DNA of 64,000 nucleotides, taken from positions 20,952 through 84,951 of IMG/VR virus record IMGVR_UViG_3300025697_000014. One strand, 5' to 3'. This document shows positions 19,427-63,572 of this stretch, piece by piece (within the stretch, counting starts at the first letter, position 1; every line of letters starts with the position of its first letter). The position numbers were made by a program, and so were the translations under genes. The notes below the pieces were generated by a model, which saw nothing but the letters and a program-made list of their open reading frames with translations, was not told the DNA's origin and did no database searches. The DNA is from a virus.

Positions 19427-20006
19427 CCAAACTCCTCTTGTGTATAACGATCATGCTCTTGGAGAGATGCATGAACAATATACGGCTTTTGTCAAGACGT
19501 GGATCGCCCCACCGGCCATGTCCATAGTCATTTATCTCGTCTATTAGCGGGCGAAACATATCAACGGTTGTCGGTCCTCCATTGTTGTATTCTGTGCGAT
19601 ATCCAGCGCGTACATCTTCGATAATCCATAGTCCACCAGGTTTAAGATGCGGAAAGCCAAGATCGAAGGCTGTCTTAACATCTACCGATTGGTGGCTACC
19701 ATCATCGACAACAACATCGAACTCTCCAAGCCGCGACCATAGATTGCTATCTGTAGCATCGCCATGATGGAACTTAAAGCGTGGATCGCTTACATTGTTG
19801 ATTTTGATATCTATCCCGTCAACGAGTGAATCTGGCAAGTACTCAAGCCACATCTTAATAGACATACCCTCGTGAACACCAATCTCTAGCAGGTGTAACG
19901 GACGAGGTAGCCAGGACAAATACCACTCGTATCTATACAAGTAGTTGTTTGCCCTTGACGTCTTGTCCGTTCCACATCTCAGACCGATGTCATTCAGGCT
20001 TTCCAT
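19419..20006 (-). CDS. Class I SAM methyltransferase (CmcI/hydroxylase-like)
   Basis: The start is the ATG at 20006 in GGAGGTCTAATG; 195 residues. LLEIGVHEGMSIKMW is the SAM-binding motif I, followed by VDGIDIK and FDVVVDDGSHQSVD, typical of sugar and macrolide O-methyltransferases of the CmcI-like group. It probably methylates a sugar made by the cassette. Confidence 0.85.
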   Translation of the reverse strand: MESLNDIGLRCGTDKTSRANNYLYRYEWYLSWLPRPLHLLEIGVHEGMSIKMWLEYLPDSLVDGIDIKINNVSDPRFKFHHGDATDSNLWSRLGEFDVVVDDGSHQSVDVKTAFDLGFPHLKPGGLWIIEDVRAGYRTEYNNGGPTTVDMFRPLIDEINDYGHGRWGDPRLDKSRILFMHLSKSMIVIHKRSLDA

Positions 20007-20659
20007 TAGACCTCCGGCCACTCGTCAGGGAACCCAGCCTTGTGACGGGCTTCGTATGTCTCCCTATCGATCTTGTTGTGTTCCATGTCTAGAATCTTGA
20101 GACGCTGAGCATCGCGATCCTGATGATGTGTGAATGTTGCTTCTGCGCAGAATACAAGCGCATGTGCTTCATTAGCTCTGAATGTCCACTCGTTATCGCC
20201 ATATTCGACGTAGTACCAGGGGAGACCCATTCTACCATTCATAACGGTATCAACGTATTCCCGAGTACACATCCATAGGGTGGCTAGTGTTCCATAGTGC
20301 CACGGGTCGTGGAAAGCTACAAAGCCCTTGTTGGGCGTGTCTAGGCAAGCCCGTAGCCAGCCATCGTCGAATTCCATATCGTCCGACATAAGAGCAATCC
20401 ACTCGCCAGTTGAGACCTGGTAACCAGCTTCCCACTTCTCTTGTGGGTGTCCGTTACGATAGTCTTCTGGCATAAGCACTACTCGTACATCGAGTAAGTC
20501 CATCATAGCTTCTCTGCTTATGATGTCTGGTGCGTCCAGAATGACGATAATCTCTGTATTAATACCGGCGGTTGTTGCGCGTATGTTAGCGAGTGATCGC
20601 TTGAGACCACCTACTCTGTCTCTACTCGGTATGAGAATGCTGACTAGCGGATCTGCCAT
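20006..20659 (-). CDS. GT2-like glycosyltransferase
   Basis: The 217-residue GT-A protein opens VSILIPSRDRVGGLKRSL, then EIIVILDAPD, and has a DXD-like segment LMSDDMEFDDGWL that would bind the metal and nucleotide sugar. Gene ends overlap neighbours by 1 and 16 nt. It would add a sugar to a phage or host glycan; donor and acceptor are unknown. Confidence 0.85.
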   Translation of the reverse strand: MADPLVSILIPSRDRVGGLKRSLANIRATTAGINTEIIVILDAPDIISREAMMDLLDVRVVLMPEDYRNGHPQEKWEAGYQVSTGEWIALMSDDMEFDDGWLRACLDTPNKGFVAFHDPWHYGTLATLWMCTREYVDTVMNGRMGLPWYYVEYGDNEWTFRANEAHALVFCAEATFTHHQDRDAQRLKILDMEHNKIDRETYEARHKAGFPDEWPEV

Positions 20660-21183
20660 AGCTCTCTCCCTTCTTCCCCATTCCAGTCCTGGAAGAAAAG
20701 GTTGTCCCTTTTCTCGAAGATAGTGATATTGGATTCGTCCTTGTTTACCTCTATTGTCCTGATAGATGGCGAGAACTGCTTCAGGAATGCGACGATGTTA
20801 TCTACGTCCTGTGTGCGCCTAGTATCGTGGAAAGCTAGCTTGCCTCCAATTTTCAGTAGAGGCCATGCGTTAAATGCGAACTCGCGTCGTTTGTCATCGA
20901 CTCCATCATCAAAGATGAGATCGTAGCCACTACCCTTTCTCTCCATGTATTGTTGGTATGTAACAATCTCTATCTCACGTATGTCTAGATCTGAGAGACG
21001 CTTATTGGTGGTCTCAATCCAGTAAGGATCGGTTTCAACCGATTTCATAGGACATGTAGAATAAGCAGCCATCACCTGTGTAGACGCTCCACATCCAAAC
21101 TCTAGGATGCTGGTTGCTTCACAGGCAAGCTTACGTAATACCACAGCGTCTGCTTTACTGATATCGCCAATGTACGGGATCAT
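20644..21183 (-). CDS. SAM-dependent methyltransferase
   Basis: The ATG at 21183 overlaps the previous stop (AATGA), giving 179 residues; the longer frame upstream is a shadow. SILEFGCGASTQVM is motif I, with an acidic residue in MKSVETDPYW and YDLIFDDGVDD as motif II. It resembles enzymes that methylate sugars or small molecules in surface-glycan clusters. Confidence 0.82.
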   Translation of the reverse strand: MIPYIGDISKADAVVLRKLACEATSILEFGCGASTQVMAAYSTCPMKSVETDPYWIETTNKRLSDLDIREIEIVTYQQYMERKGSGYDLIFDDGVDDKRREFAFNAWPLLKIGGKLAFHDTRRTQDVDNIVAFLKQFSPSIRTIEVNKDESNITIFEKRDNLFFQDWNGEEGRELWQIR

Positions 21184-21845
21184 TTCTGTTGAACCTCCAT
21201 GTGCTCTGCTATCTTGGTAGTCCAGTAATTGGACTGACCAACACCAATTGATTTCATATAGTATAGCTCGTCGTCTGATAGGTCGCTTACCTTGTCGTAG
21301 TACCAAGGGACATGTATAGCATCGTAGGGTGGCGCAGAGCGTACAGCGGGGAAATCATGTAGTCGACTACGGCATAGACAGAAAGTTGTGTCAATGTCAC
21401 TGCCATAGAACTGATCGTCTACCTTACGTGACCAAGCAATGGCTTCCCACTTCTTAGCCTGGATACCGATAACTGTCGGTGGTAAGTCGCTGGTCCTTAG
21501 AGAGAAACCAGACTTACACGCAAACTCATGTCTATCTAGACCTAGCTGAAGTACATGCGGCCAATCCTTCGGGATATGGTCGATCTTCAGATCGGGGTCT
21601 GTGACAACGAAACCACCATTGAGACCAAAGTCGTCCAGGATACTCGTTAGCCAGACTACAGCACACCCGTAGTTCATATCCATACGCAGAACCTTGTGAG
21701 GTGTAGTCTCGTAGTACTCCAGCAACGGGGGATATGTACTCTTGTTATCTATGATGATAGGGGTTACCCCAGGACACTCAGCAAGATAGTCTGCCATTCT
21801 GCGCGGAAGGTGAAGACGGTTGTAGTTGATGATAAAGGCATACAT
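21180..21845 (-). CDS. Glycosyltransferase-like protein (GT-A)
   Basis: Starting at the ATG at 21845, the 221-residue protein has MYAFIINYNRLHLPRRMADY, TPIIIDNKS, YGCAVVW and FVVTDPDLKID. These are a GT-A N-terminus and a DPD metal-binding motif. It is close in layout to glycosyltransferases found in virion-glycan clusters. The start is chosen because it sits just after the preceding stop. Confidence 0.75.
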   Translation of the reverse strand: MYAFIINYNRLHLPRRMADYLAECPGVTPIIIDNKSTYPPLLEYYETTPHKVLRMDMNYGCAVVWLTSILDDFGLNGGFVVTDPDLKIDHIPKDWPHVLQLGLDRHEFACKSGFSLRTSDLPPTVIGIQAKKWEAIAWSRKVDDQFYGSDIDTTFCLCRSRLHDFPAVRSAPPYDAIHVPWYYDKVSDLSDDELYYMKSIGVGQSNYWTTKIAEHMEVQQK

Positions 21846-21847
21846 GT

Positions 21848-22339
21848 CTATTTCCCGTTCCTGCATTCAAAGTGGAGCCACCATGGAACATCTTTATCAC
21901 CAGGTGATTTATCGAGATTGATTGACGTAAATCCATAGTTGGTAAGTAGGTCTACCAACGTGATTTTCGTGAAAAGGTTATAGTGCTGATGTGGGTAACC
22001 AGCCTGGTCTCCATACAAGTTTCGCATGAAAGTTTCACGATCAATCGTGCCAGCAACATACTTCTTGATATTAGAGTCAAGGCTAGGAGTAGTGCCGTGT
22101 AGAAGGCCGTGCGGTTTGAGAATTCGCTTCCACTCAGGGAAAACGAGGTGATACTTCCACACAGGAACATGCTCAATTACATCACCAACCCAAATCTCGT
22201 CTACATAGTCGTCCTCAAGAGGAATATCAACGAAGTCACACACTATTTCGATGTGAGGCCCTTCGTCAAAGTCCAAATGAATCCAGTCGTCCAATGGCTT
22301 CTTGGTATTCAGGCCGCAGCCCATGTCCAGCTTAATCAT
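21848..22339 (-). CDS. SAM-dependent methyltransferase
   Basis: The 163-residue protein starts with IKLDMGCGLNTKK (SAM motif I), then WIHLDFDEGP, VDEIWVGDVIEHV and FPEWKRILKPHGLL, the classic class I methyltransferase order. It belongs to the glycan cassette and may methylate a sugar or lipid. A GGAAAGGTGGTACA ribosome site precedes the ATG. Confidence 0.88.
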   Translation of the reverse strand: MIKLDMGCGLNTKKPLDDWIHLDFDEGPHIEIVCDFVDIPLEDDYVDEIWVGDVIEHVPVWKYHLVFPEWKRILKPHGLLHGTTPSLDSNIKKYVAGTIDRETFMRNLYGDQAGYPHQHYNLFTKITLVDLLTNYGFTSINLDKSPGDKDVPWWLHFECRNGK

Positions 22340-22368
22340 TGTACCACCTTTCCATAGTGTATCTCATA

Positions 22369-23190
22369 TCAAGCCTCAGTTGGCTCGACAATATCTGTTT
22401 CTACGTGTTTGTTGAAGCCTCCATCAAAGTATGGTGGAATCTGACCGTTCTGTAGAGCGAGCTTGTATCTGTTGTAGTTCGGCATACCCTGAGAAGCCTG
22501 CCTACTCTTCCATGCTGTATATTCAGCTAGTGGATTTGGATCAATGTGATCGATATCAACGCCATGTAAGAAGCACGATGAATATCCCAGCTTGTGTGCT
22601 CTAAGGGCAGCGATAGCATCGTCAAAGCCATAGACCGTGTCAGGTTGTAGCAAGTAGCCGAATTCAGGTAACATACTTGGATTGAAGCAGTAACAGGTAC
22701 CCATAACGTGGTTCGTTTCCTCGATTACTATCCACGGCTCTCCTGGCTTCTGATCAACCATCAAAAGGCGTGTGCGATAGAATGGTTCCGAAGAAGTAGG
22801 CCGTTCCGGTAGATCCTTGCGCTTCATGCCGAGAATACCAACAGAAGGCATGCGCTCAAGAACGAACTCTACACGCGATGTCCACCCGGGTGTGTTTATG
22901 ACACAATCGTTGTCCATCTTACAGAGAACTTCTCCCTCGTCAGCCAGTCTCCAAGCCTGATTCGTACCACCGGCAATTCCAAGGTTCTCTCCGTTAAAGA
23001 TCACGGAGAAGTTTTCATAGCGTTCCATGACGGTCTGATAAACATAGTGTGTCAGTTTACAAGACCCATTGTCCGATACCACAACGCGGTCTGTGCCTCT
23101 GATGCTCTCCATCAGCACCTCTAGCGTCTTTGCAGTTAGTTCACTCCTGCCGTTCTCTTCTGTGTCCCATACGGGCATTGCGATCAACAT
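22369..23190 (-). CDS. GT2 family glycosyltransferase
   Basis: The 273-residue GT-A enzyme has RVVVSDNGSCKLT, FNGENLGIAGGTNQAW and LCKMDNDCVIN (the DXD-type motif), followed by a C-terminal region with YGFDDAIAAL and HGVDIDH. It is the first enzyme of the leftward glycan cassette, so it is transcribed early in that operon. Confidence 0.9.
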   Translation of the reverse strand: MLIAMPVWDTEENGRSELTAKTLEVLMESIRGTDRVVVSDNGSCKLTHYVYQTVMERYENFSVIFNGENLGIAGGTNQAWRLADEGEVLCKMDNDCVINTPGWTSRVEFVLERMPSVGILGMKRKDLPERPTSSEPFYRTRLLMVDQKPGEPWIVIEETNHVMGTCYCFNPSMLPEFGYLLQPDTVYGFDDAIAALRAHKLGYSSCFLHGVDIDHIDPNPLAEYTAWKSRQASQGMPNYNRYKLALQNGQIPPYFDGGFNKHVETDIVEPTEA

Positions 23191-23492
23191 CTTAGTACTC
23201 CCTCCCTTATTGCTAAATCAAAGTGACTCAAAACATTGTCAAGGAACAAATCGAAGTCTTCTGTAAGTACACCTCCTATACCTCTACACAACATGGCGTT
23301 TCTAAGTCGTATTATAGCGTGCTCTTTTGCATCTACTCGTTTAATACGGCCTTCTCTAAGTGCGTATAGAAGGCTGTCCAAAGTAGCTTTCTGGTCTTTC
23401 GGTAAGCAATATCTTTGCGTGAATTCAAACATATGTGTCATGTACTCCTTTATTATATGCGGTTGTTCGATATAGTCAATTTGTTCGCCCAT
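23184..23492 (-). CDS. Hypothetical protein at the head of the leftward operon
   Basis: I place the start at the ATG at 23492 (MGEQIDYIEQ), 102 residues. The longer open frame upstream is antisense to a real plus-strand gene. The product is helical and charged, without a known motif. The ribosome site is weak. It lies at the divergence point between leftward late genes and rightward genes, so its promoter should be within 23493-23526 or inside the neighbour. Confidence 0.6.
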   Translation of the reverse strand: MGEQIDYIEQPHIIKEYMTHMFEFTQRYCLPKDQKATLDSLLYALREGRIKRVDAKEHAIIRLRNAMLCRGIGGVLTEDFDLFLDNVLSHFDLAIREGVLRC

Positions 23493-23526
23493 AGCTGCTT
23501 CGCAATAAACATCAAATGGAGGTTTG

Positions 23527-24033
23527 ATGAACGTATATACATGCGATTGGATGCAAACAACGGAAGTGCGTAGGTTAAAGAGGACATTCTGGCAGAGGGT
23601 GAAGCAGGGTTTGTTCCGCCCCTTCCAGATCGAGATTGTGGTGACACCTATCGAAGAAGTATACGCAATAGGAGACACCGTATTCATGCACCCATCAATG
23701 TACGAGGGATGGATAACCGACAAGAACGACGAGAACATCATACTCACTAGAGAAGCCGGTAGGGGTAGTGGAACCACAACAGCTATGGTACACAGACTCA
23801 TAGAGTCATTGGTTGTGGATAACCATATCAAGACCGCGACATTGGAGGCCCATACCAACGCATATGGTTGCCAGATACTAGAGAACCTAATCAAGTACTC
23901 GCGGCAAAGAGGTTATGAAGTGGGCCGTATTTTCAGAGACAAGGTTCAGATCGAGAAGAAGTGGGTAGTGGTAAATGGCGGGATGTTTGTGCCCAACCTG
24001 TATACAGACCATCACAAAGAGGGAATAGGATGA
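23527..24033 (+). CDS. Hypothetical protein with degenerate P-loop
   Basis: The ATG at 23527 follows a GGAGG site at 23517; 168 residues. A segment AGRGSGTTTAMVHRLIESL in the middle has the spacing of a Walker A loop, but Thr replaces the invariant Lys. The C-terminal half (RQRGYEVGRIF...WVVVNGGMF) looks like alternating strands and helices. Function unknown. It is the first gene of the rightward region. Confidence 0.7.
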   Translation: MNVYTCDWMQTTEVRRLKRTFWQRVKQGLFRPFQIEIVVTPIEEVYAIGDTVFMHPSMYEGWITDKNDENIILTREAGRGSGTTTAMVHRLIESLVVDNHIKTATLEAHTNAYGCQILENLIKYSRQRGYEVGRIFRDKVQIEKKWVVVNGGMFVPNLYTDHHKEGIG

Positions 24034-48000: not shown

Positions 48001-48073
48001 GCGTCTATAGCTCAATCGGATAGAGCCCCTGCCTTCTAAGCAGGTGGTTGCTGGTTCAAGTCCAGCTAGGCGC
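48001..48073 (+). tRNA. tRNA-Arg (UCU anticodon)
   Basis: A complete cloverleaf: acceptor GCGTCTA/TAGGCGC (one G-U), D stem GCTC/GAGC, anticodon stem CCTGC/GCAGG with loop CTTCTAA (anticodon TCT), and T arm GCTGG-TTCAAGT-CCAGC. The discriminator is T and CCA is not encoded. It reads AGA codons, which are common in these genes. Confidence 0.95.
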
Positions 48074-48075
48074 TC

Positions 48076-49164: not shown

Positions 49165-49237
49165 GCTCCGCGTGGTCTAATGGCTAAGACAATTGCTTTG
49201 TACGCAGTGGATTCCTGGTTCGAGTCCAGGCCGGAGC
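49165..49237 (+). tRNA. tRNA-Thr (UGU anticodon)
   Basis: Acceptor GCTCCGC/CCGGAGC (six pairs, C-C at position 7), D arm with GTC..GAC, anticodon stem ATTGC/GCAGT with loop TTTGTAC (anticodon TGT), and T arm CCTGG-TTCGAGT-CCAGG. CCA is not encoded. It reads ACA codons. Confidence 0.92.
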
Positions 49238-49241
49238 TTTG

Positions 49242-54514: not shown

Positions 54515-54745
54515 ATGTTGCGTATCGCAGGACAAGGAACCACGAAGACCGTTAGTGTCAACCCGGGCACCACACTTGAGGATGCCCTCAGTATGGTTGG
54601 CCTGGAATATCTACCCACCATCTCGTACCGAACATCAGAGGGAACGCTGAATCGAACATCAACTGTTCCCACCAGCGGCGTAGTTGTGTTCGCAAAGGCG
54701 GAGGCAAATGGGTCTGTGTCTGTTTTGCCTAAATCAGGGCAGTAG
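54515..54745 (+). CDS. Ubiquitin-like beta-grasp protein
   Basis: 76 residues after AGGAGGAAAC. TKTVSVNPGTTLEDALSMVG (strand, turn, helix) then ISYRTSEGTLNRTS and SGVVVFAKAEANG match the ThiS/MoaD/ubiquitin layout in length and order. The chain ends ANGSVSVLPKSGQ, not GG, so the adjacent protease might trim it to expose a Gly. Its coding region overlaps the E2-like start by 38 nt. Position with E2-, JAMM- and E1-like genes supports the call. Confidence 0.78.
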   Translation: MLRIAGQGTTKTVSVNPGTTLEDALSMVGLEYLPTISYRTSEGTLNRTSTVPTSGVVVFAKAEANGSVSVLPKSGQ

Positions 54746-55595
54746 GATTGGCGCTAACTCGCTGAACCTATTTCTATGCGACGAGCACTATTTCTATGGT
54801 GCTCGTCTTCTTTTGAACGAGTTCAATGTACGGAACTGGTTTGAAAGCGAAGAGTTTAGGTTTAACGTACCAGGTGACATCATCTACAAGGATGATCTGT
54901 ATGAGTTCCCAGATATACAGGTATCAGTCGGACGTAGGGATGGCTGGACATACGTACATATGGATGGTACTGATGAGAGTGAACATCCGCATCTGGACTC
55001 GGCTGGAGAGATGTGCCTTGGAGGCAATGGTGATCTTCTACAGAAGTACGCTGAGCAAATGAACTGGGAATCGTTCTATGCAATAGCGCTCATTTCTGGA
55101 GGATTGTATACGCAAGACGACGCCTTCAGACCATTAGTCACTTGTGAAGCTTGTGATGCTGGAGATCAAGAGATGATTGTGTGCCCCAACTGCGGGGCCA
55201 ATGTATGTGTGTACTGTTATCATTCGGAATTAGAGGTTTGTGCCCTATGTGCAAACAAGTGCTCAAACTGTGGAGGTGTTTATGGTGAAGCTGACAAGGG
55301 GATGGCGTGCGATCTTTGCGGGACGGAACTCTGTCCCAAATGTGCCTACACCGAGTACGACGAAGAAACGGATGAAGCCATTGGTAGGGTATGCTCATAC
55401 CATGCAACCTACGACAACCGGGGCGTTGTTAGATCTACCGGCAAATTTGTTCGCGGCCCTGACGAAGTGGCAGGCCGCGCACCTGGCGGAGATCTCGGGG
55501 TACGGACTAGTGACGGAGGGGAGAGTCAGGAAACTGTGGCTGACAGCGAGGGGGACGCCCGGAGGAGTGGAGACGAGCGCAGCATCCCATTCTAA
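54708..55595 (+). CDS. E2-like conjugating enzyme with zinc-rich treble clefs
   Basis: 295 residues from the ATG after GGCGGAGG. A CxxC..CxxH pair at residues 4-27, then an E2-like core: FPDIQVS, WTYVHMDG, HPHLDSAGEMCLGG, where C103 is the likely catalytic Cys in the HPH-x(n)-G-x-x-C pattern of prokaryotic E2s. Residues 146-245 hold about eight CxxC pairs (CEAC, CPNC, CVYC, CALC, CSNC, CDLC, CPKC), a RING-like treble-clef array. The polar tail is disordered. One chain may combine E2 and E3 roles. Confidence 0.75.
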   Translation: MGLCLFCLNQGSRIGANSLNLFLCDEHYFYGARLLLNEFNVRNWFESEEFRFNVPGDIIYKDDLYEFPDIQVSVGRRDGWTYVHMDGTDESEHPHLDSAGEMCLGGNGDLLQKYAEQMNWESFYAIALISGGLYTQDDAFRPLVTCEACDAGDQEMIVCPNCGANVCVYCYHSELEVCALCANKCSNCGGVYGEADKGMACDLCGTELCPKCAYTEYDEETDEAIGRVCSYHATYDNRGVVRSTGKFVRGPDEVAGRAPGGDLGVRTSDGGESQETVADSEGDARRSGDERSIPF

Positions 55596-56085
55596 GGTGC
55601 TGCTACAAGCTATTGAGGCAGGGTATGATTACCTGAACCTCCAATGGCACACACACTACAACCTCACACCATACTTCTCGTCCACTGACAACCGTGCACA
55701 AGAAGAGCTATGCGAGGAAGCTGAAACACAGCAAGAGATGTACTACCTATGTTTGGACGGGATGTCAGCGGTAGCAAGACTGTTTGATATTCCAGGTAAG
55801 ACATACGTGGATGGGTCTGTATCAATCGACGGGGTAATTCTACCCGGTAAAGAGGAAATATCGTTTGGAGGTGGAGGATATGGACCTGTCTCGACAGGCT
55901 TTACTCATCCCAGCGCACGCAATAGGGGAACTAACGTTCTTGATAATAGGGCTAGGGTCAATCGGGTCGAATGTCGCGAATGTCTTGAGCAGAATGGGTG
56001 CAAGTACGCAGACCTGGTACGACAGGGATATTACTTCTCTGGAAAATGTGGCTCCGGCTTTTTCTGGCATCAACTCAATTGGTGA
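55402..56085 (+). CDS. JAMM/JAB metalloprotease (deubiquitinase-like)
   Basis: I prefer the ATG at 55402 (55375 is also possible), giving 227 residues. E30 in AEISGYGLV, then HTH (83-85) with S93 and D96 exactly fulfils JAMM E...HxH-x7-S-x2-D. It should cleave the ubiquitin-like protein from precursors or targets. It overlaps the E2-like gene by about 190 nt and the E1 gene by 206 nt. The C-terminal 65 residues lie in the second overlap and look unstructured. Confidence 0.85.
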   Translation: MQPTTTGALLDLPANLFAALTKWQAAHLAEISGYGLVTEGRVRKLWLTARGTPGGVETSAASHSKVLLQAIEAGYDYLNLQWHTHYNLTPYFSSTDNRAQEELCEEAETQQEMYYLCLDGMSAVARLFDIPGKTYVDGSVSIDGVILPGKEEISFGGGGYGPVSTGFTHPSARNRGTNVLDNRARVNRVECRECLEQNGCKYADLVRQGYYFSGKCGSGFFWHQLNW

Positions 56086-56575
56086 TACGAAAGTAGACAC
56101 CGCGTATGCCAGGATACAGCAAGACCTCGGAGAAGAGGAGGTCAAGAATATCAGAGCATATCCATACTTCTATAAGAACCAACGCGAACACGCCGACATC
56201 GTCATTGTCGGCGTGGACAGTATGGAGGTACGCCGGGAGATCTGGGCTAACAATAGGATCGAAGGCTGGAAGCTCTGGATCGACGGTAGAATGGGTGAGG
56301 ACCAAGCTGGCTTGTATATCGTTCGAGAGAATGACGACTATGAATGGTATGAGGAGAGTCTAGCTCGGCCAGGTGCGGAGCTAATGTGTGGAGAGAAAGC
56401 TACAGCTCCCATCTGCGCAGGTCTGATACCCGGTATGGTAGGCTCTGTCATCATGCGGTATGTGAACGGACTAACCGTACCGCAAAGTATCTTCGTGAAG
56501 ATGCTACTGGACTTTGGGATGTTCTTCTCAGTAGGAGAGGGGGAAGTATGCTCTGCAACAGACGATACTACGTAA
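55880..56575 (+). CDS. E1/ThiF-like activating enzyme
   Basis: 231 residues after GGAGGTGGAGGAT. GLGSIG (24-29) is the ATP-binding loop, then YDRDITSLENVAP (D48, D50, N56) and VGVDSMEVRREIW. ELMCGEKATAPICAG has two Cys near the adenylation crossover. It should adenylate the C-terminus of the ubiquitin-like protein and pass it on. It lacks the larger domains of eukaryotic E1, as in bacterial ThiF and MoeB. Confidence 0.9.
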   Translation: MDLSRQALLIPAHAIGELTFLIIGLGSIGSNVANVLSRMGASTQTWYDRDITSLENVAPAFSGINSIGDTKVDTAYARIQQDLGEEEVKNIRAYPYFYKNQREHADIVIVGVDSMEVRREIWANNRIEGWKLWIDGRMGEDQAGLYIVRENDDYEWYEESLARPGAELMCGEKATAPICAGLIPGMVGSVIMRYVNGLTVPQSIFVKMLLDFGMFFSVGEGEVCSATDDTT

Positions 56576-56853
56576 GTGTAGACGATCTGGAGATTGAGAT
56601 CCCCGTCGAGTTCCACGGAGAGCTTGACGACGATCTATGGAGCTGGAATGGCGAGGAGTTCTCATATGCTGTTCCAGATCTGGAGTCCGGGTGTGATCCT
56701 GATTCCACCGAGGAAGATGTTATAGCTTGGGGACTCGGTGACGTATGGTGTGTGATTAAAGTACGGACAGATGTCAATGGAGTAGCAAATACATCTAGTG
56801 CTACATGGCCGTACTTTGGACGTGAAGCGGCAAGTAAAGAGGTGAATGCATGA
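56548..56853 (+). CDS. Hypothetical acidic protein after E1
   Basis: 101 residues after AGGAGAGGGGG, overlapping E1 by 28 nt. Beta-rich and acidic (YYVSVDDLEIEIPVEFHGEL). Possible partner of the conjugation system. Confidence 0.65.
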   Translation: MLCNRRYYVSVDDLEIEIPVEFHGELDDDLWSWNGEEFSYAVPDLESGCDPDSTEEDVIAWGLGDVWCVIKVRTDVNGVANTSSATWPYFGREAASKEVNA

Positions 56854-57029
56854 AGGTAGTCGGAGGAGTTAACTGGTACGAGTGTCCTCAGTGTTCAAAG
56901 AAAGACGAGCGCCGATTTGTGCGCGTGGCCTTTGACATCAGAGACCTGGGATTCATCAGAGTGTGGGGTCTCAAGAAGAAACTGTCGTGCCCTAGTGGGC
57001 ACACCCACATGGTAGATATCACAGGATAG
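56850..57029 (+). CDS. Small zinc-ribbon protein
   Basis: 59 residues overlapping the previous gene. YECPQCSKKDERRF and LSCPSGHTHMV provide a four-ligand metal site. Confidence 0.66.
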   Translation: MKVVGGVNWYECPQCSKKDERRFVRVAFDIRDLGFIRVWGLKKKLSCPSGHTHMVDITG

Positions 57030-57228: not shown

Positions 57229-57642
57229 ATGTCGTACCAGAAGATCGTTTTATTCGGGAATCTTGGCAGGGACCCAGAAATGCGCTATCTTGACGATGGA
57301 ACAGCTGTTACATCGTTCAGTATGGCGACGAACCGTCGATGGAAGAACACAGATGGATCGAAGGGTGAAGAGGTTGTGTGGTGGCGCGTGACTTGTTGGC
57401 GTGGGCTAGCAGAGGTCGTGGCGCAATACCTCACCAAAGGCCGTCAGGTGTTGGTTGAGTGCCGCATGAGTCCTGAGAAGGGTACTGGTAGTCCCAGGAC
57501 CTGGCAGGACAGTGAAGGAAACTGGCGTGCCTCGTATGAGGTTGTTGCCAGCAGTGTTATCTTCGGCGGCAGTGCTGGAGATACACCCAGCGAGAGTGGT
57601 CCTACGGCTGGGCCAACAGAAGAAGACGAGGTTCCCTTCTAG
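57229..57642 (+). CDS. ssb: Single-stranded DNA-binding protein
   Basis: 137 residues after GGGAGGAAAGA. KIVLFGNLGRDPEMRYLDDG, FSMATNRRW, WWRVTCWRGLAEVVAQYL and KGRQVLVEC are the OB-fold of bacterial SSBs, and the acidic tail ends DEVPF like the partner-binding tip. It coats ssDNA in replication and recombination. Confidence 0.95.
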   Translation: MSYQKIVLFGNLGRDPEMRYLDDGTAVTSFSMATNRRWKNTDGSKGEEVVWWRVTCWRGLAEVVAQYLTKGRQVLVECRMSPEKGTGSPRTWQDSEGNWRASYEVVASSVIFGGSAGDTPSESGPTAGPTEEDEVPF

Positions 57643-58097
57643 GGATCTTTGATCTCAACGACAGAGGGCGAATCGATCACACCCTCTGTCGGTCTTCCCA
57701 TTTGTGGGATGAAGATATGAAGTTGAGGACCACCGGATGCCTGGATGGGGGTACTACGTGCTCCCATCTTGGCTATCTCTAATACGAAAGCTGCAGCAGC
57801 AGTAGAGTTCCCCTTAGCCTCTCCTCTGGCTACCATTGCTTGATGAGTCACAATGGATTGAAGCTCATCTAGGGCTGTGATCTGCGCTGCGTCAGAACGT
57901 ACATCGTGGATGTCTGCAAGGTAGGTAGTAAGCTTACCTTCGCGGAGCCAACGTGTGGTAGCTTGGTAATTGAGACCAAGCTCTTCACAAGCCTTGCGCG
58001 TACTAACACCTGGGTGTTCTGCGCGGAAGGTGAAAAGCTTTATCAGATGACCTGCGATGATTTCATCATCGAGCTGGGCAAGTTCGTTTGAAGTCAT
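57639..58097 (-). CDS. HTH protein, terminase-small-like, predicted leaderless
   Basis: 152 residues from the ATG at 58097. STRKACEELGLNYQATTRWL is a helix-turn-helix, followed by a helical middle and an Ala/Pro tail, as in small terminase subunits that bind packaging sites; it could also be a regulator. TGGTATAAT (58104-58112) lies exactly 6 nt before the ATG and there is no ribosome site. Convergent with SSB (4-nt overlap). Confidence 0.7.
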   Translation of the reverse strand: MTSNELAQLDDEIIAGHLIKLFTFRAEHPGVSTRKACEELGLNYQATTRWLREGKLTTYLADIHDVRSDAAQITALDELQSIVTHQAMVARGEAKGNSTAAAAFVLEIAKMGARSTPIQASGGPQLHIFIPQMGRPTEGVIDSPSVVEIKDP

Positions 58098-58103
58098 GTA
58101 CTT

Positions 58104-58171
58104 ATTATACCATACACCTGTCACTTTACCAGGCTTGGTACTCTTGCAATCAATGACAAACGATGTATACT
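58104..58171. promoter_or_regulatory. Divergent leaderless promoters
   Basis: Minus strand: TGGTATAAT at 58104-58112, 6 nt before the ATG at 58097. Plus strand: TTGCAA (58144), 16-bp spacer, TATACT (58166-58171), 6 nt before the ATG at 58178. Both would start at the ATG. Two HTH proteins are controlled here, so cross-regulation is likely. Confidence 0.65.
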
Positions 58172-58177
58172 GTACAT

Positions 58178-58402
58178 ATGAATACACACAACGAAGTACA
58201 CACATACATGAGGATGTACCAACAAGCACACGGTCAACCACCTACGCTGAGAGAGATCAAGGACTCCTGCCAACACCTGAACTGGAGAAGCAGCGCAAGG
58301 TATGCAATCAACGCACTCATATCACAGGGACGTGTCACTATTGTAGCGCCAATGAACTATGGAAGGAGATATAGCGCAAATGACCAACGAGGCAACAGTT
58401 AG
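58178..58402 (+). CDS. LexA-like winged-helix regulator
   Basis: 74 residues. GQPPTLREIKDSCQHLNWRS then AINALISQGRVTI has the LexA DNA-binding pattern (PTxREI..L...L...G). The serine protease half of LexA is absent. It has no ribosome site and a -10 box 6 nt before the ATG. Likely a transcriptional repressor. Confidence 0.72.
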   Translation: MNTHNEVHTYMRMYQQAHGQPPTLREIKDSCQHLNWRSSARYAINALISQGRVTIVAPMNYGRRYSANDQRGNS

Positions 58403-58931
58403 GCACGAATTGCGCAATATGCTGCGCTATCACTACGGGCTATGGCCTGATCACTGGCCCGATATTCCAGGGACCAAACGCCCTGGCCGACCAGATCTCA
58501 TCGTCATGAACCCACGAGGACCAGGATTCTACATTGAAGTTAAGACGTTGTATTATAAACGCAACAAGTCATTCGGCTTCGATAGGATTGAACAGTCACA
58601 GCGTAATTGGTTGAGTACTTGGGAAGAGCAAAGACACGGTGGTAGCTGGCTTGCTATTGGAGTCATTGGAGCACCAGATAAACGTAGTACATTCGTGATC
58701 CCGTGGACATACTGGCAAGCACTAGAGGATCTCGTCAAAGAACACCAGCACAGTTTACCATACGTAGCAGGTAAGGGATTCTCTAAGCCTATGCAAGAAG
58801 ACCGTCTAGACTTCAGATTGATCAATGACTTTAAGCTAGACCGCGTACCCCCGTCAGAAAGAAAACACCTAGACTCAGGATGGAGATTCAAGGAGGAGGA
58901 ACCGTGGCTGAGGAATTATCAATCGCGATAG
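58380..58931 (+). CDS. PD-(D/E)xK nuclease-like protein
   Basis: 183 residues from the ATG after GAAGGAGATATAGCGC. GRPDLIVMNPRGPGFYIEVKT is the PD..ExK catalytic segment of VRR-NUC or Holliday-resolvase-type nucleases. Likely acts in phage DNA recombination or host DNA degradation. Confidence 0.82.
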   Translation: MTNEATVRHELRNMLRYHYGLWPDHWPDIPGTKRPGRPDLIVMNPRGPGFYIEVKTLYYKRNKSFGFDRIEQSQRNWLSTWEEQRHGGSWLAIGVIGAPDKRSTFVIPWTYWQALEDLVKEHQHSLPYVAGKGFSKPMQEDRLDFRLINDFKLDRVPPSERKHLDSGWRFKEEEPWLRNYQSR

Positions 58932-59665
58932 GAAACAACTACCCAATATTCCAGACATCCGACATGTCAAAACTTGTCGAGATAGCACTGAAGGATCTAC
59001 CCTCCGATATCGAGGAAGAGTCACAAGCAGTAGCCTGGGTGGTCAAGCGTATACTTGAGCTTGGACAGCAGGGAAGACACAGACAGCGTACTATCCAGAT
59101 GGCACTGGTGTCCTGGATTGCCAATGGAGACATGGGCAGGATATATCAGGCACACCCAGAACATTACCCAGATCTACGTAGCTTTCTCAAATCGGTTGGT
59201 ACAAGAGAGAAAGGTAATCAGCTGTCACCGTCAACCATCACAGAGATGGTCACGGTGGCAGATATTTTCGTTCCCTTCTGTCAGGACAACGATATTGAGT
59301 TCCAGCACTTCATTGCTACGGATCTGTGGACTAAGGCGCGTGAGGCAATGACAGCTATCAAGGCTGCTATTGTTAAGGACGATGCTGTTAGTGTTGTTGC
59401 GATCTTGCAGGATGTAGTCGAGCTTCCTTCACGAGATGCTGTGAGAGAGAAGTACCGCTCTAGGAGTAACGAGAAGTTTGGCAGGTCTGACCTTATCCTT
59501 GGGAACGGTGTATCTGTTGTGGTCACTATCGTGCCAACCAGCAGGATCAGCGATATCAAGCGTGCTCTAGGTAGATACACAGAGTGGGATGCGTTCGCCA
59601 GTGGTACCATCAACCGTATCATCGTCAATACAGGAGGAACCAATGGAGACGTACACCAAACTTGA
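58904..59665 (+). CDS. Hypothetical replication-module protein
   Basis: 253 residues from GTG after CAAGGAGGAGGAACC. Mostly helical first two thirds, then a beta-rich end with RSDLILGNGVSVVVTIVPTS. No motif I know. Its place between nuclease and helicase genes suggests DNA binding. Confidence 0.68.
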   Translation: MAEELSIAIGNNYPIFQTSDMSKLVEIALKDLPSDIEEESQAVAWVVKRILELGQQGRHRQRTIQMALVSWIANGDMGRIYQAHPEHYPDLRSFLKSVGTREKGNQLSPSTITEMVTVADIFVPFCQDNDIEFQHFIATDLWTKAREAMTAIKAAIVKDDAVSVVAILQDVVELPSRDAVREKYRSRSNEKFGRSDLILGNGVSVVVTIVPTSRISDIKRALGRYTEWDAFASGTINRIIVNTGGTNGDVHQT

Positions 59666-60158
59666 TATCAAAGAGATTGCCTACGAGCTAGGCGAGCACT
59701 TCAACAAGCATGACTTGGATGGATACACTGGTAGGTGTGTCATCTGTAACACCCGTGTTGGCCAGCAAGTCAATGAGTGCCCAGGCTGTGGTACGCCGGT
59801 AGTGTGGCTGAACTCTTCTGTATGGACCTCTCTATTCGGTAGTGGGAAGATGCGTGTACGTGAACTAGATGCGGTACCTGCTAATTGTACTAGTGGCAAG
59901 CAGCTTCTTAGTAGATGTAGAGCACTAGGGTTTGCTAATCTTAAAGAGAGAGACGATTGGACGAAGTTTGATAGAAGGTTTGGTCAGGCCGAAGCTGAAC
60001 GAGTGATAGAGTATGTGTTCAAGGCAGACAAGACCTACGGGCGTGGTGCTATGGCGCACGCTATGGCTATCGCACGCAAGAAGCTACGCGAGAATCCCCT
60101 GTCTACTACTATCAAGAGAGAGGACACTGTCACGAGCATGAAGGCGTGGCAGGAATGA
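59643..60158 (+). CDS. Zinc-ribbon protein before the helicase, possible loader
   Basis: 171 residues. RCVICNTRVGQQ and ECPGCGTPV form a zinc ribbon, followed by helices. It ends 4 nt into the helicase gene. Helicase loaders often occur here, but the sequence gives no direct proof. Confidence 0.68.
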   Translation: METYTKLDIKEIAYELGEHFNKHDLDGYTGRCVICNTRVGQQVNECPGCGTPVVWLNSSVWTSLFGSGKMRVRELDAVPANCTSGKQLLSRCRALGFANLKERDDWTKFDRRFGQAEAERVIEYVFKADKTYGRGAMAHAMAIARKKLRENPLSTTIKREDTVTSMKAWQE

Positions 60159-61408
60159 GCCTAGTAGAAGACTATCTAGCCGTACTGTGTAGGATGCCAG
60201 GTGAGACTAACGAAGAAGCACTCATTAGGTTCCATACATACTATCAAAGAGCACCAGCTGGTGATGCAGAAGCGGGCTTTGAGTTTCTAGAACAGCAAGC
60301 GTTCCGTGGTATCTCTGTTACACCTAGAGTCCTGCTTGCTGCAACTGGTATAGAGGTATCACAAGAAGGGCTGACGCCAGAGTCGACTCAGTTCTTCTTC
60401 GAGAAGTTCGTGAAAGAGGATGAGCGCAAACGGGTACTCCTGGCTGGTCAACAGCTTCTCAAGATAGCTGATGGTCAACCAGGCAGTATTGATGACGTTA
60501 TGGCAGCGGTTAACGTGAGCGATGTCAACAAGCAGACTGCGCTTACAATGAGCGATCAGACCGCCATCGGTCTCAAGCTCTACAGAGAGCGTGTAACCGC
60601 ATTAGCTGAAGGGAAACCCAGGGTTGCGTTCCCTTGGCCCAAGCTGAATGAGTGGGTCCCGTTTATTTACGATGACGACATGATTCTGCTTACTGGTAAG
60701 TCCAAGACAGGCAAGTCATCAGCGGCTCACCAGATAGCGATGTATAATGCTAGTCGTATACCAGTACTATACTTCCATAACGAGGACAACCAGCTCAAGT
60801 TGTTCCTGCGCAGAACAGCACAGTCTCAGCTAGGACTAGACCCTGAACTCAGGGGTCCTGCCCTGGCAAGTACACTAAGTTACCGAGACCTCCTCTCACA
60901 CAACGTAAAATCTGATGCTTTCATGAGTCAGATTGAACGTAATAGCCAAGACTTACTGAACCACATGCATGACAACATTACGTATGTGTACTGCTCTGGA
61001 TGGACAGCAGAACAGATCATCCATGAATGGAGACGTATCAAGTCAGTGCAACCACTAGGCCTCGTCATCATCGACTACCTCAATAAGATCGAGTCATATG
61101 CAAAGATAGGTAAGATCGGCACAATGGCCGGTGCAATGGAGTACAACGTCGAGCTATTCAAGCGCGAGGCTGGGCGCAAGGGACAGATGACAACGTGCGT
61201 GCTCGTACAGCAGGAGAACGAGAGTGGTACAACACGAGATACCAGGTCCAGCTATATCAAGAGCCAGGTACATGTCTCGTTCACACGGGACACCAACGAG
61301 AACGGAATGAGATTACAGGGTAGCATCGCTATCCTGCGTGCTAATGATGGAATGACAGGGAGAATCGAGGCTCGTTTCATGCCTGAGTATATGATATGGA
61401 TAGCCTAG
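60155..61408 (+). CDS. DnaB-like replicative helicase
   Basis: 417 residues from the ATG overlapping the previous stop. Walker A GKSKTGKS (181-188), ILYFHNEDN-like H1a and LGLVIIDYLNKI Walker B fit the RecA-like DnaB/KaiC fold. A Gln-rich CVLVQQEN-type motif follows. The N-terminal part is short and unlike the usual DnaB domain. Confidence 0.88.
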   Translation: MSLVEDYLAVLCRMPGETNEEALIRFHTYYQRAPAGDAEAGFEFLEQQAFRGISVTPRVLLAATGIEVSQEGLTPESTQFFFEKFVKEDERKRVLLAGQQLLKIADGQPGSIDDVMAAVNVSDVNKQTALTMSDQTAIGLKLYRERVTALAEGKPRVAFPWPKLNEWVPFIYDDDMILLTGKSKTGKSSAAHQIAMYNASRIPVLYFHNEDNQLKLFLRRTAQSQLGLDPELRGPALASTLSYRDLLSHNVKSDAFMSQIERNSQDLLNHMHDNITYVYCSGWTAEQIIHEWRRIKSVQPLGLVIIDYLNKIESYAKIGKIGTMAGAMEYNVELFKREAGRKGQMTTCVLVQQENESGTTRDTRSSYIKSQVHVSFTRDTNENGMRLQGSIAILRANDGMTGRIEARFMPEYMIWIA

Positions 61409-61422
61409 CTAAGGAGATTAAC

Positions 61423-61644
61423 ATGTGGGGAATTACTTCTGCCATGGCGTGTTCTGCTATGGTGTTGACCGGCCGACTGATCATGTATTGGAATGGACAC
61501 GAGCAAAGAAAACTATCGAGAGAGCGAATGGCAACAGTTTACGGACAGGGCTTGACCCCTGAAGCCCTCCGTATTAAGGCTGAGATTATAAAGGCAGAAG
61601 AAGAGAAGGATGCGCTAGCTGGCATGCTAAGAGAGAGACGATGA
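61423..61644 (+). CDS. Small membrane/coiled-coil protein
   Basis: 73 residues after AAGGAGATTAAC. One N-terminal span (SAMACSAMVLTGRLIMYW) and a charged helix. Unknown. Confidence 0.62.
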   Translation: MWGITSAMACSAMVLTGRLIMYWNGHEQRKLSRERMATVYGQGLTPEALRIKAEIIKAEEEKDALAGMLRERR

Positions 61645-61955
61645 AGAAAAATGGCTGGCCTAAGATTGCAGGACTACACACAGTGCTGCTGGGTCTGCAC
61701 GGGGCTGACCTGTTGACGACTTCTATGGTGTCACCTGGACAAGAGGCCAATCCGCTTATGAGAAACCTGTGGATTAACGGAGGCTTCAGTATGATGATTT
61801 TAGCTAAAGCAGCCTCATGGATGCTTATGCTTGCTTACTATCTAGCCATACTAAAATGGTTACCCGGATTCGAGAAATCAATATGGGTAAGTCAGTTCAT
61901 TGGATTGGTTGCGATGGTTGCATTAGTTGGATGGAATATTCATATGGTGTTTTAG
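61641..61955 (+). CDS. Three-span membrane protein
   Basis: 104 residues. ADLLTTSMVSPGQEANPLMR is a pattern found in DUF5658-like small membrane proteins, with three hydrophobic segments. Role unknown. Confidence 0.7.
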   Translation: MKKNGWPKIAGLHTVLLGLHGADLLTTSMVSPGQEANPLMRNLWINGGFSMMILAKAASWMLMLAYYLAILKWLPGFEKSIWVSQFIGLVAMVALVGWNIHMVF

Positions 61956-61977
61956 AATTGCTAGGAGACCGGTAGAT

Positions 61978-62658
61978 ATGGATAGCGTAAACATACTGTA
62001 TGATAGAGTAATCATTTGGGGCGGCACTGGTATTTGCAAACAAGCTAAACCTGTCATCGAGCACTATGGCTCGAAGGTGATAGCTATCTTCGATGACACA
62101 GACATAGAGCCACCCTTTGATGATGTACCACTATACAAGGGGTGGGAAGGCTTTGCGAAATGGCGACAAAAGCTCTATAGAGAACATGATCTATACAACA
62201 ACATAGGCTTCCTGGTTGCCGTTGGAGCACCACATGGAGAAGCCCGCCTACGTATTCATAATCAACTCAAGCACGAGGGACTGTTACCCATCACACTGTG
62301 TCACCCTTCGTCCGTCGTCTTCCCAGATGTAACTATAGGAGAAGGGTGTCATATCATGGCACATGCCGTACTTGGTCCTGCTGCTGTCTTGGGTAAGCAG
62401 GTTCTCGTCCATACCAGCGCTAACATCACACACGACTGCGTGCTGGAAGATTGTGCCACCGTTGCTCCTAATGGCACATTGTGTGGAGACGTACATCTTA
62501 AACCCAGGGCATGGGTATGTGCTGGTGCCACAGTGCTACCAGGGCTTACCATTGGCTCCGGTGCCGTTGTCGGCGCAGGTGCTACCGTTACTCGTGATGT
62601 ACTGGCAGGCGAGGTCGTAGTAGGAATCCCAGCTAAACCCCTACACCGCAAAGTGTGA
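61978..62658 (+). CDS. NeuD-like sugar O/N-acetyltransferase
   Basis: 226 residues. VIIWGGTGICKQAKPVI and IAIFDDTD are the N-terminal nucleotide-sugar fold. Hexapeptide repeats (CHIMAHAVLGPAAVLGKQ, GSGAVVGAGATVTRDV) form a left-handed beta-helix with catalytic His in NITHDCVL. It resembles acetyltransferases of sialic acid and O-antigen pathways and may act with the glycan cassette. Confidence 0.88.
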   Translation: MDSVNILYDRVIIWGGTGICKQAKPVIEHYGSKVIAIFDDTDIEPPFDDVPLYKGWEGFAKWRQKLYREHDLYNNIGFLVAVGAPHGEARLRIHNQLKHEGLLPITLCHPSSVVFPDVTIGEGCHIMAHAVLGPAAVLGKQVLVHTSANITHDCVLEDCATVAPNGTLCGDVHLKPRAWVCAGATVLPGLTIGSGAVVGAGATVTRDVLAGEVVVGIPAKPLHRKV

Positions 62659-63572
62659 TGTATCTAGATCTCTCTAGGTATAGACTAACCTCACGAAAGC
62701 GTGGGGGTCAGTACTCGGGGCAATGCTGGTATACTGGCGAAGGGCGCGATAGATTCACTATTGAGCCTAATCCACCAGAGGGTGGGCCTCCACGCTGGTT
62801 CTGTAGAGCATGCTCCTTTTCATGCGGCCACGGATTCTCGGGTGGCGCTACAAGATACGGTACATTCCACGATAAGCAGGCACCAGAAAGGCCCAAGATG
62901 AAAGCAAGGAAGAACGTCGTCACCCTGCAAATGGTAGAGACCTACGAACGATTCCTAGATGACAATGGCCTGGAGTACCTGAAATCACGCGGTATCAGCG
63001 AGACAACAGCTCGTCATTTCAGACTAGGAATGGTAGGTGGAGTATACATAACCATACCGTGTGTATACACATGGAAGGATAAGGTTAGATGTCAGGCAAT
63101 CAAGAAACGCTGGATCGAGAAACATAGACCAGCAGATCAACCAGCATACCTCGCACTCCCGGGCAGTAAGACCAAGGCCATCTTCAACTTCAACATCCTC
63201 CAACAAGATCGAGAGTGGGGTATCATAGCCAACTCTCTATTCGATGTAATGCTGTTGCATGAACTAGGTCTGCCTGTGGTTGGACCGTTTGCAGGTGAAG
63301 CCTCTTGGGATGATGAATGGTTCAAGTATATCCACTGGGAAACAGTGGTTAATCTTGGCGATTGGGACGATGAGATTGAGCCCATTCAAGATGGTGGCGA
63401 ACCTTATAGACCTGGAACGTTGTTCATGCTTGCCCGCGCAGTAAAGCTGCGAGGCAATATTATTCAGAATGTTATTAATGTCTACCCTCCGAATGGGGCT
63501 ACGGATGTGAGCAGGGCCTGGGAGAAGGGTGAAGATATCAAAGCGTGGATCAATAGCTTAATAGGAGGTTAG
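62658..63572 (+). CDS. DnaG-like primase (zinc finger plus TOPRIM-like)
   Basis: 304 residues from the ATG overlapping the previous stop. C23 and FCRACSFSC make a zinc finger. FLDDNGLEYLKSRGISETTA is the conserved GI-T segment. Then FNFNILQQDREW and WDDEIEP, which hold TOPRIM-type acidic residues, and VSRAWEKGEDI. Primes replication with the helicase next to it. Confidence 0.85.
   Translation: MYLDLSRYRLTSRKRGGQYSGQCWYTGEGRDRFTIEPNPPEGGPPRWFCRACSFSCGHGFSGGATRYGTFHDKQAPERPKMKARKNVVTLQMVETYERFLDDNGLEYLKSRGISETTARHFRLGMVGGVYITIPCVYTWKDKVRCQAIKKRWIEKHRPADQPAYLALPGSKTKAIFNFNILQQDREWGIIANSLFDVMLLHELGLPVVGPFAGEASWDDEWFKYIHWETVVNLGDWDDEIEPIQDGGEPYRPGTLFMLARAVKLRGNIIQNVINVYPPNGATDVSRAWEKGEDIKAWINSLIGG

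What the first reader, a model, noticed from the sequence alone, without database searches (positions are those of the whole stretch)
54515..56575. A complete ubiquitin-like conjugation operon in a phage
Four consecutive overlapping genes encode a 76-residue beta-grasp protein, an E2-like protein with HPH..G..C at C103 and a RING-like zinc array, a JAMM protease with every catalytic residue (E30, H83, H85, S93, D96), and a ThiF/E1 enzyme with GLGSIG. Bacterial E1-E2-JAB-Ubl clusters act in antiphage defence; in a phage the set could modify a host protein, tail proteins or counter such defence. E2 and E3 functions seem to be in one chain, which would be unusual.
Basis: partly seen in the sequence, partly recalled or inferred. 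Interest (0 to 1): 0.93.

Follow-up and report, generated by a model that had tools for sequence, protein, structure and literature searches.

The report
Phage-encoded ubiquitin-like conjugation gene cassette
This virus of bacteria carries a complete four-gene kit for tagging proteins with a ubiquitin-like label and taking the label off again, and similar kits turn up in many other phages, which suggests that protein tagging is an unrecognised tool of phage infection.

Summary
At 54515-56575 an 85-kb phage contig encodes, in overlapping order, a beta-grasp Ubl, an E2 with HPH-x4-G-x2-C plus a large zinc array, a JAMM protease and a single-domain ThiF/E1. On single sequences only E1 and, weakly, JAMM are recognisable. 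Scanning IMG/VR for the E2 motif recovered 23 further non-redundant phage loci with E2+JAB+E1, nearly all in that order, about 20 with a Ubl gene nearby. Family profiles match SAMP2 (8e-11), ubiquitin E2s (2e-4), RPN11 (1e-11) and UBA5/ThiF (5e-21), with catalytic residues invariant or nearly so. The E2 family has no good Pfam, PHROG or NCBIfam model. 'RING-like' needs correction: the tail holds two tandem cross-brace-spaced modules that do not fit the RING consensus. The cassette lies in the replication module here, in crAss-like and in Flavobacterium phages; some relatives have AAA+ ATPases nearby. Best reading: a maturation-conjugation-deconjugation pathway acting early in infection. It is not Bil, type II CBASS, PRTRC/6d or 6e by tested features. 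The substrate is unknown and no biochemistry exists. New variant of a known kind.

The parts
54515..54745 (+). Ubl gene: 76-aa beta-grasp modifier precursor; family-aligned conjugation glycine is G66 (KAEANG|SVSVLPKSGQ), implying a 10-aa propeptide (alternative: G75)
   Evidence: alignment; AF2 pLDDT 83.6, last strand 55-61, tail floppy; Foldseek: TtuB-type, SUMO, ubiquitin; profile to SAMP2 7.8e-11
54708..55595 (+). E2-like protein with C-terminal zinc array, 295 aa
   Evidence: family HMM hit 6e-23 (the window was one of the training sequences)
55014..55016 (+). Predicted E2 catalytic Cys103 in HPHLDSAGEMCLGG
   Evidence: Invariant across 24 phage E2s
54717..54791 (+). N-terminal zinc finger of the E2 protein: C4-x2-C7-x16-C24-x2-H27
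   Evidence: Sequence
55143..55250 (+). First cross-brace-spaced zinc module, E2 residues 146-181
   Evidence: pattern in 0 of 2000 shuffled tails
55260..55403 (+). Second cross-brace-spaced zinc module, E2 residues 185-232
55402..56085 (+). JAMM/JAB metalloprotease, 227 aa, E30 H83 H85 S93 D96; first 194 nt overlap the E2 gene
   Evidence: Prok-JAB 0.005; PADLOC JAB 5e-5; family profile to RPN11 1.3e-11
55880..56575 (+). E1/ThiF adenylating enzyme, 231 aa, single adenylation domain; first 206 nt overlap the JAMM gene
   Evidence: ThiF 1.3e-12; PADLOC E1-E2 5e-11; family profile to UBA5 4.5e-21, ThiF 5e-20
56387..56389 (+). Predicted E1 thioester cysteine C170
   Evidence: Invariant in 25 of 25 E1s
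57229..63572 (+). Adjacent replication module (context): SSB, VRR-NUC nuclease, DnaB-like helicase, primase

Best explanation
The four genes form a self-contained ubiquitin-like conjugation and deconjugation pathway. Steps: (1) the JAMM protease clips the Ubl precursor, probably after G66; (2) the E1, probably a homodimer, adenylates the Ubl C-terminus and forms a thioester at C170; (3) the Ubl passes to C103 of the E2; (4) the E2, whose own C-terminal zinc modules take the place of a separate E3 for substrate choice or activation, joins it to an amine on a target protein; (5) the JAMM protease removes it. Because the cassette lies in the early/replication module here and in other phage groups, the likeliest use is reversible tagging of phage replication proteins or of a host protein early in infection, in some relatives possibly handed to a phage AAA+ unfoldase. 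Shown here: the four components, their active-site residues, conserved synteny and genomic setting. Inferred: the reactions, their order, the E3-like role of the zinc modules, the timing and the target.
For: Components, residues and fold. In the low-confidence E2 model the four best Foldseek hits are all E2s (UBE2E1, UBCH5B, UBE2S, Ubc13), though none is significant. Synteny: 23 further non-redundant phage loci with E2+JAB+E1, 22 in the order E2-JAB-E1 and one E2-E1-JAB (L036); the Ubl lies just upstream in most and after E1 in some. Ubl tails share a Gly near the C-terminus followed mostly by 1-4 residues, as expected of precursors that JAMM must mature. In Caldiarchaeum, Rpn11/JAMM removes a nine-residue propeptide from pro-ubiquitin, and E1, E2, a small RING protein and JAMM work together in vitro (PMC5654768). 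Replication setting: window; crAss-like phages; Flavobacterium phage Fpv1; neighbourhood census with DnaB, primase/helicase, Sak4, ParB, RuvC, endonuclease VII and SSB. AAA+ proteins near relatives: ClpC-like 839 aa in L017 (PHROG ATP-dependent protease 1e-257) and AAA in L033, L060, L061, L076.
Against: No biochemistry exists. The full-length E2 model is weak. E1 is short, without a separate Cys half-domain or UFD, and the MoeB Arg73 position appears as Asn in most of the family and Pro in the window, so catalysis may be non-canonical. The window Ubl lacks a GG end. No separate substrate, E3 or AAA+ unfoldase gene was found on the window contig. The neighbourhood census shows co-location only, had no control set, and phage early regions hold many unrelated genes.
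Confidence: 0.6

Rival explanations
1. A phage-borne antiviral system: like the bacterial Bil system it tags structural or other proteins of competing phages, so the resident phage excludes superinfecting phages.
For: Same component order as reported for BilABCD (Ubl, E2, JAMM, E1; PMC11354881); a bacterial ISG15-like system tags the central tail fibre (PMC11364771); E1 and JAB match PADLOC defence models.
Against: The cassette lies in the replication module rather than a variable cargo region, and recurs there in distant phages. E1 is a single adenylation domain and the Ubl is single, unlike the BilD and BilA described in PMC11354881. PADLOC matches are to E1-E2 fusions, are partial, and reflect shared domains.
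Confidence: 0.18
2. Counter-defence: the phage uses JAMM and Ubl/E2 as deconjugase or decoy against host Bil or CBASS conjugation.
For: JAMM resembles defence JABs. Phage inhibitors of CBASS exist (own knowledge).
Against: A decoy does not need a complete set with invariant E1 and E2 cysteines. JAMM is co-linear with its own Ubl rather than standing alone.
Confidence: 0.1
3. Sulfur-carrier pathway (ThiS/MoaD/SAMP2-like), for example tRNA thiolation; the phage carries two tRNA genes.
For: The closest solved relative of the Ubl profile is SAMP2, with ThiS and MoaD next; E1 resembles ThiF/UBA5; tRNA-Arg and tRNA-Thr genes lie in the window.
Against: A dedicated E2 with an invariant HPH and Cys is not part of ThiS/MoaD pathways; the neighbourhood census showed no sulfurtransferase or thiolase among the families listed.
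Confidence: 0.07
4. Maturation of the phage's own tail or virion proteins by Ubl tagging, in analogy to the lambda tail proteins I (Ub-like) and K (JAB-NlpC).
For: Phage tail operons with a Ub-like protein and JAB are known (PMC1779556).
Against: Portal, terminase and the rest of the predicted structural block are about 40 kb away on the other strand; lambda-type clusters lack E1 and E2.
Confidence: 0.04

Closest known systems
BilABCD (bacterial ISG15-like antiphage system)
   Same: Four genes in the same order: Ubl, E2, JAMM, E1; JAMM matures the Ubl (PMC11354881).
   Different: Here one Ubl domain instead of two; E1 of 231 aa with one adenylation domain instead of an IAD+AAD pseudodimer with a Cys domain; an E2 with zinc modules; carried by phages in the replication module.
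Caldiarchaeum subterraneum / Asgard E1-E2-srfp-ubiquitin-Rpn11 operon
   Same: Ub, E1, E2, a zinc E3 element and a JAMM closest to RPN11; propeptide of similar length (9 aa there, 10 aa here) (PMC5654768).
   Different: There the RING (srfp) is a separate protein and the pro-ubiquitin has a GG; here zinc modules are fused to the E2 and their spacing is not RING.
PRTRC / operon type 6d of Iyer et al. 2006
   Same: Ubl, JAB, E1 and E2-like genes together; ParB-like genes lie near a few of the phage cassettes. That 6d corresponds to PRTRC is my own knowledge.
   Different: The 6d E2 lacks the histidine before the Cys and its JAB has an N-terminal alpha+beta domain (PMC1779556); the window E1 scores 24.7 bits against a PRTRC_ThiF cut-off of 144.75.
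Type II CBASS Cap2/Cap3
   Same: E1 resembles the Cap2 E1 domain (7tsq 0.004 alone; profile 2e-12).
   Different: Cap2 is an E1-E2 fusion acting on a CD-NTase; here E1 and E2 are separate, with a true Ubl and no CD-NTase found.
Prokaryotic RING-associated E1/E2/JAB/Ubl clusters (Burroughs, Iyer and Aravind 2011; from memory, paper not held)
   Same: Zinc treble-clef domains tied to E1, E2, JAB and Ubl.
   Different: Could not be compared in detail; whether they included phage cassettes or E2-fused tandem zinc modules is unknown to me.

Membership tests
Prokaryotic ubiquitin-like conjugation cassette (general kind: Ubl + E1 + E2 + JAMM) | Beta-grasp Ubl gene adjacent | tested here: met
   AF2 beta-grasp, Foldseek prob 1.00 to SUMO/ubiquitin; family profile to SAMP2 7.8e-11
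Prokaryotic ubiquitin-like conjugation cassette (general kind: Ubl + E1 + E2 + JAMM) | E1 with nucleotide-binding motif and catalytic Cys | tested here: met
   GLGSIG and invariant D48, D50, K71, D113, C170; UBA5 4.5e-21
Prokaryotic ubiquitin-like conjugation cassette (general kind: Ubl + E1 + E2 + JAMM) | E2 with UBC fold and active-site Cys | tested here: inconclusive
   Motif invariant; profile hits in PDB are nearly all E2s, best 2e-4; AF2 model low confidence
Prokaryotic ubiquitin-like conjugation cassette (general kind: Ubl + E1 + E2 + JAMM) | JAMM with E, HxH, S, D | tested here: met
Prokaryotic ubiquitin-like conjugation cassette (general kind: Ubl + E1 + E2 + JAMM) | Covalent conjugates formed | not testable with these tools
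   Needs biochemistry
Bil (BilABCD) | Gene order Ubl-E2-DUB-E1 | tested here: met
Bil (BilABCD) | E1 with inactive plus active adenylation domains and Cys domain | tested here: not met
   E1 is 231 aa with a single ThiF domain
Bil (BilABCD) | BilA with two Ubl domains | tested here: not met
   76 aa, one domain
Bil (BilABCD) | Antiphage activity | not testable with these tools
   Needs an infection assay
Type II CBASS | E1-E2 fusion and CD-NTase in the operon | tested here: not met
   Separate E1 and E2; no CD-NTase recognised among the adjacent ORFs scanned
PRTRC / type 6d | E2 without the His before the Cys; E1 above PRTRC_ThiF cut-off | tested here: not met
   HPH precedes C103; 24.7 of 144.75 bits
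Type 6e polyUbl | PolyUbl, inactive E2, JAB fused to E1 | tested here: not met
   Single Ubl, E2 with Cys, separate JAB and E1
RING E3 domain | Canonical RING spacing C-x2-C-x9-39-C-x1-3-H-x2-3-C-x2-C-x4-48-C-x2-C | tested here: not met
   Pattern absent from the window tail; FYVE/PHD-like cross-brace spacing found twice instead

The most novel reading that the evidence does not exclude
Phages have their own widespread lineage of ubiquitin-like systems, with an E2 family absent from Pfam, PHROGs and NCBIfam, used as a standard part of the infection programme: tagging replication or host proteins and, where a Clp-like or Cdc48/PAN-like AAA+ ATPase is encoded nearby, sending tagged proteins for unfolding or degradation. 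The E2-zinc fusion of this phage would be a one-protein E2-E3.
Probability: 0.35. Interest if true: 0.93.

Novelty: new variant of a known kind. Interest (0 to 1): 0.76.

Why it matters
Bacterial ubiquitin-like conjugation is so far known mainly as antiphage defence. A complete, separately organised cassette in many phages turns the question round: phages may tag proteins for their own ends. The E2 family is not covered by the main libraries, so phage annotation misses it; E1 is labelled 'thiamine biosynthesis protein' and JAB 'metalloprotease' in cultured crAss-like and Flavobacterium phages. Those isolates make the function directly testable. Fused E2-zinc proteins bear on how E3 activity arose.

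Tried and rejected
Single-protein searches in viral contigs gave only identical copies or nothing; the degenerate DNA motif scan solved this. Arthrobacter phage Sonny gp55 and Microbacterium phage Pavlo (E2 hits at E 2-5) were read and rejected as chance. tblastn of E2 or JAMM in named phages and of E2 or E1 in plasmids: none. Terminase relatives L008-L012 were contig fragments without E2, so uninformative. Whether the E2 and Ubl of crAss-like phages complete the set could be only half tested: JAB and E1 clear, Ubl and E2 profile hits not significant. An assembly error as cause of the long overlaps was not excluded past 55193; up to there a second contig is identical over 6486 nt. Literature: the held library gave no paper describing a phage Ubl-E2-JAMM-E1 cassette; the main Bil and RING papers are not held, so novelty against subscription literature is untested.

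Full report
WHAT IS THERE. The window is bases 20952-84951 of an 84,951-bp virus record with portal, DnaB helicase, primase and SSB genes. Four plus-strand genes overlap head to tail: Ubl 54515-54745, E2 54708-55595, JAMM 55402-56085, E1 55880-56575. Ubl, E2 and E1 have good Shine-Dalgarno sequences; the JAMM start is weaker, but its catalytic E30 forces a start well inside the E2 gene, so the long overlap is real unless there is an assembly error. On single sequences only E1 (ThiF 1.3e-12) and, weakly, JAMM (Prok-JAB 0.005; PADLOC JAB 5e-5) are recognised; E2 and Ubl match nothing convincing.

RELATIVES. tblastn in named phages found E1 only, in crAss-like phages at 24-30% identity. I therefore back-translated the E2 active-site motif HPHxxxxGxxCLG and scanned IMG/VR: 84 stretches. 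Roughly half are chance; the rest are E2 genes by HMM. In 23 further non-redundant loci a JAB gene and an E1 gene (window E1 phmmer 4e-21 to 8e-4) lie on the same strand beside the E2, 22 in the order E2-JAB-E1 and one as E2-E1-JAB; three more have E2 and E1 without a JAB matched by the motif used. A small Ubl ORF lies next to the set in about 20, including loci not used to train the profile (L036 1e-9, L054 4e-9, L080 2e-8, L064 5e-7, L062 2e-6). The contigs reach 178 kb or more.

IDENTITY OF THE PARTS. Aligned families show the expected active sites. Profiles against the PDB name the fold in each case: Ubl to SAMP2 7.8e-11 and ThiS/MoaD; E2 to UbcH5B 2e-4 followed by other ubiquitin E2s; JAB to RPN11 1.3e-11, then CSN5 and AMSH; E1 to UBA5 4.5e-21, ThiF and UBA6. 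The Ubl model is confident in the core (first 60 residues 88-93) with last strand 55-61 and a floppy tail; the Foldseek list is sulfur-carrier Ubls, SUMO and ubiquitin, best E 3.5e-3, probability 1.00. The E2 model is poor (57.1), though its core shows a helix, a five-strand meander and helices after C103, and its top four structure hits are E2s without significance. None of the E2s tested scored a good Pfam, PHROG or NCBIfam model.

UBL C-TERMINUS. Most phage Ubls end in a Gly followed by one to four residues. In the window the alignment and the model both put the equivalent Gly at 66, leaving SVSVLPKSGQ as a ten-residue propeptide; G75 (SG-Q) is the alternative. Caldiarchaeum pro-ubiquitin has a nine-residue propeptide removed by its JAMM Rpn11 (PMC5654768). 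My estimate for G66 is about 0.75 (inference; the model was built on the same alignment, so the two are not independent).

ZINC MODULES. The E2 tail holds sixteen Cys/His ligands in two units of cross-brace spacing, absent from 2000 shuffles; a RING consensus does not match. That such spacing is typical of FYVE and PHD fingers is my own knowledge. L019, L037 and both E2s of L088 have similar units; L029, L054, L056, L060, L064, L065, L079 and L091, and bacterial L101, L102, L109, L111 and L115, have other Cys-rich tails; the rest have none. On an E1 tree the zinc trait needs at least ten changes among 39 rows, with many weak forks, so tails seem gained or lost repeatedly; the window is a long, unplaced branch.

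SETTING. Next to the cassette are SSB, a VRR-NUC nuclease, DnaB helicase and primase. In crAss-like phages JAB and E1 lie between primase and uracil-DNA glycosylase; in Flavobacterium phage Fpv1 near uracil-DNA glycosylase and exonuclease VIII. A census of 124 neighbouring ORFs is led, among named families, by helicase, primase, Sak4, ParB, nuclease and SSB families, with a few endolysins; no control set was run. AAA+ proteins lie near five relatives. The portal and terminase of the window lie about 40 kb off on the other strand. This favours an early role over tail modification but does not prove it.

MECHANISM. Shown: the parts, the residues, the conserved order and the setting. Inferred: JAMM maturation, E1 adenylation with thioester at C170, transfer to E2 C103, ligation helped by the zinc modules, removal by JAMM. 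Caveat: the position of MoeB Arg73, a catalytic residue (PMC12355090), appears as Asn in most of this family and Pro in the window by my reading of the alignment.

MEMBERSHIP. It is a prokaryotic Ubl conjugation cassette in general kind. It shares gene order with BilABCD but fails two of its described features (single Ubl, single adenylation domain); it fails the defining features of type II CBASS, PRTRC/6d and 6e as described in PMC1779556 and PMC11354881. Kinship to the RING-associated clusters of Burroughs 2011 could not be tested. About ten cassettes or fragments in bacterial MAG contigs show the kind is shared with cellular genomes or their mobile elements.

VERDICT. New variant of a known kind; interest 0.76.

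Noticed in passing
L100 (Flavobacterium phage Fpv1) 2219-4511: The JAB gene is split into an N-terminal part (gp56) and a C-terminal part with the HSH...SGTD motif (gp54) by an endonuclease gene (gp55) on the opposite strand, suggesting a homing endonuclease or intron insertion.
   Followed up: partly
L017 2874-5390: An 839-aa Clp_N/AAA_2/ClpB_D2-small unfoldase (PHROG 'ATP-dependent protease' 1e-257) lies about 300 nt downstream of E1; a Ubl-coupled unfoldase is conceivable.
   Followed up: partly
L033 3-950, L060 8708-9853, L061 11498-12934, L076 482-2122: Classical AAA (PF00004) ATPases within about 5 kb of the cassette in four phages, and a ParB-type HTH protein in L076.
   Followed up: partly
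L056 3921-6055, L062 1-1249, L088 1793-3980, L105 2916-5140: Two E2 genes in tandem in one cassette, which may form an active pair with different tails.
   Followed up: no
L101, L102, L105, L108, L109, L111, L113, L115: The same Ubl/E2/JAB/E1 cassette or parts of it in MAG contigs of Myxococcales, planctomycete, CPR, Zixibacteria and Deltaproteobacteria, some on contigs over 100 kb; whether prophage, plasmid or chromosome was not checked.
   Followed up: partly
window 16797-23801 (minus strand): A block of glycan-related genes: a protein with sulfotransferase and glycosyltransferase 2 domains, a DegT-type aminotransferase, and methyl- or glycosyltransferase-like ORFs, next to the structural genes; perhaps virion or host-surface sugar modification.
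   Followed up: no
window 56548-57029: Two small genes directly after E1: a 101-aa protein without matches and a 59-aa zinc-ribbon-like protein; possible accessory or substrate genes of the cassette.
   Followed up: no
window 48001-48075 and 49165-49238: tRNA-Arg (TCT) and tRNA-Thr (TGT) genes.
   Followed up: no
window 55402-55595 and 55880-56085: Unusually long gene overlaps (194 and 206 nt) between E2/JAMM and JAMM/E1; the overlapped C-terminal tails look disordered and unconserved.
   Followed up: partly
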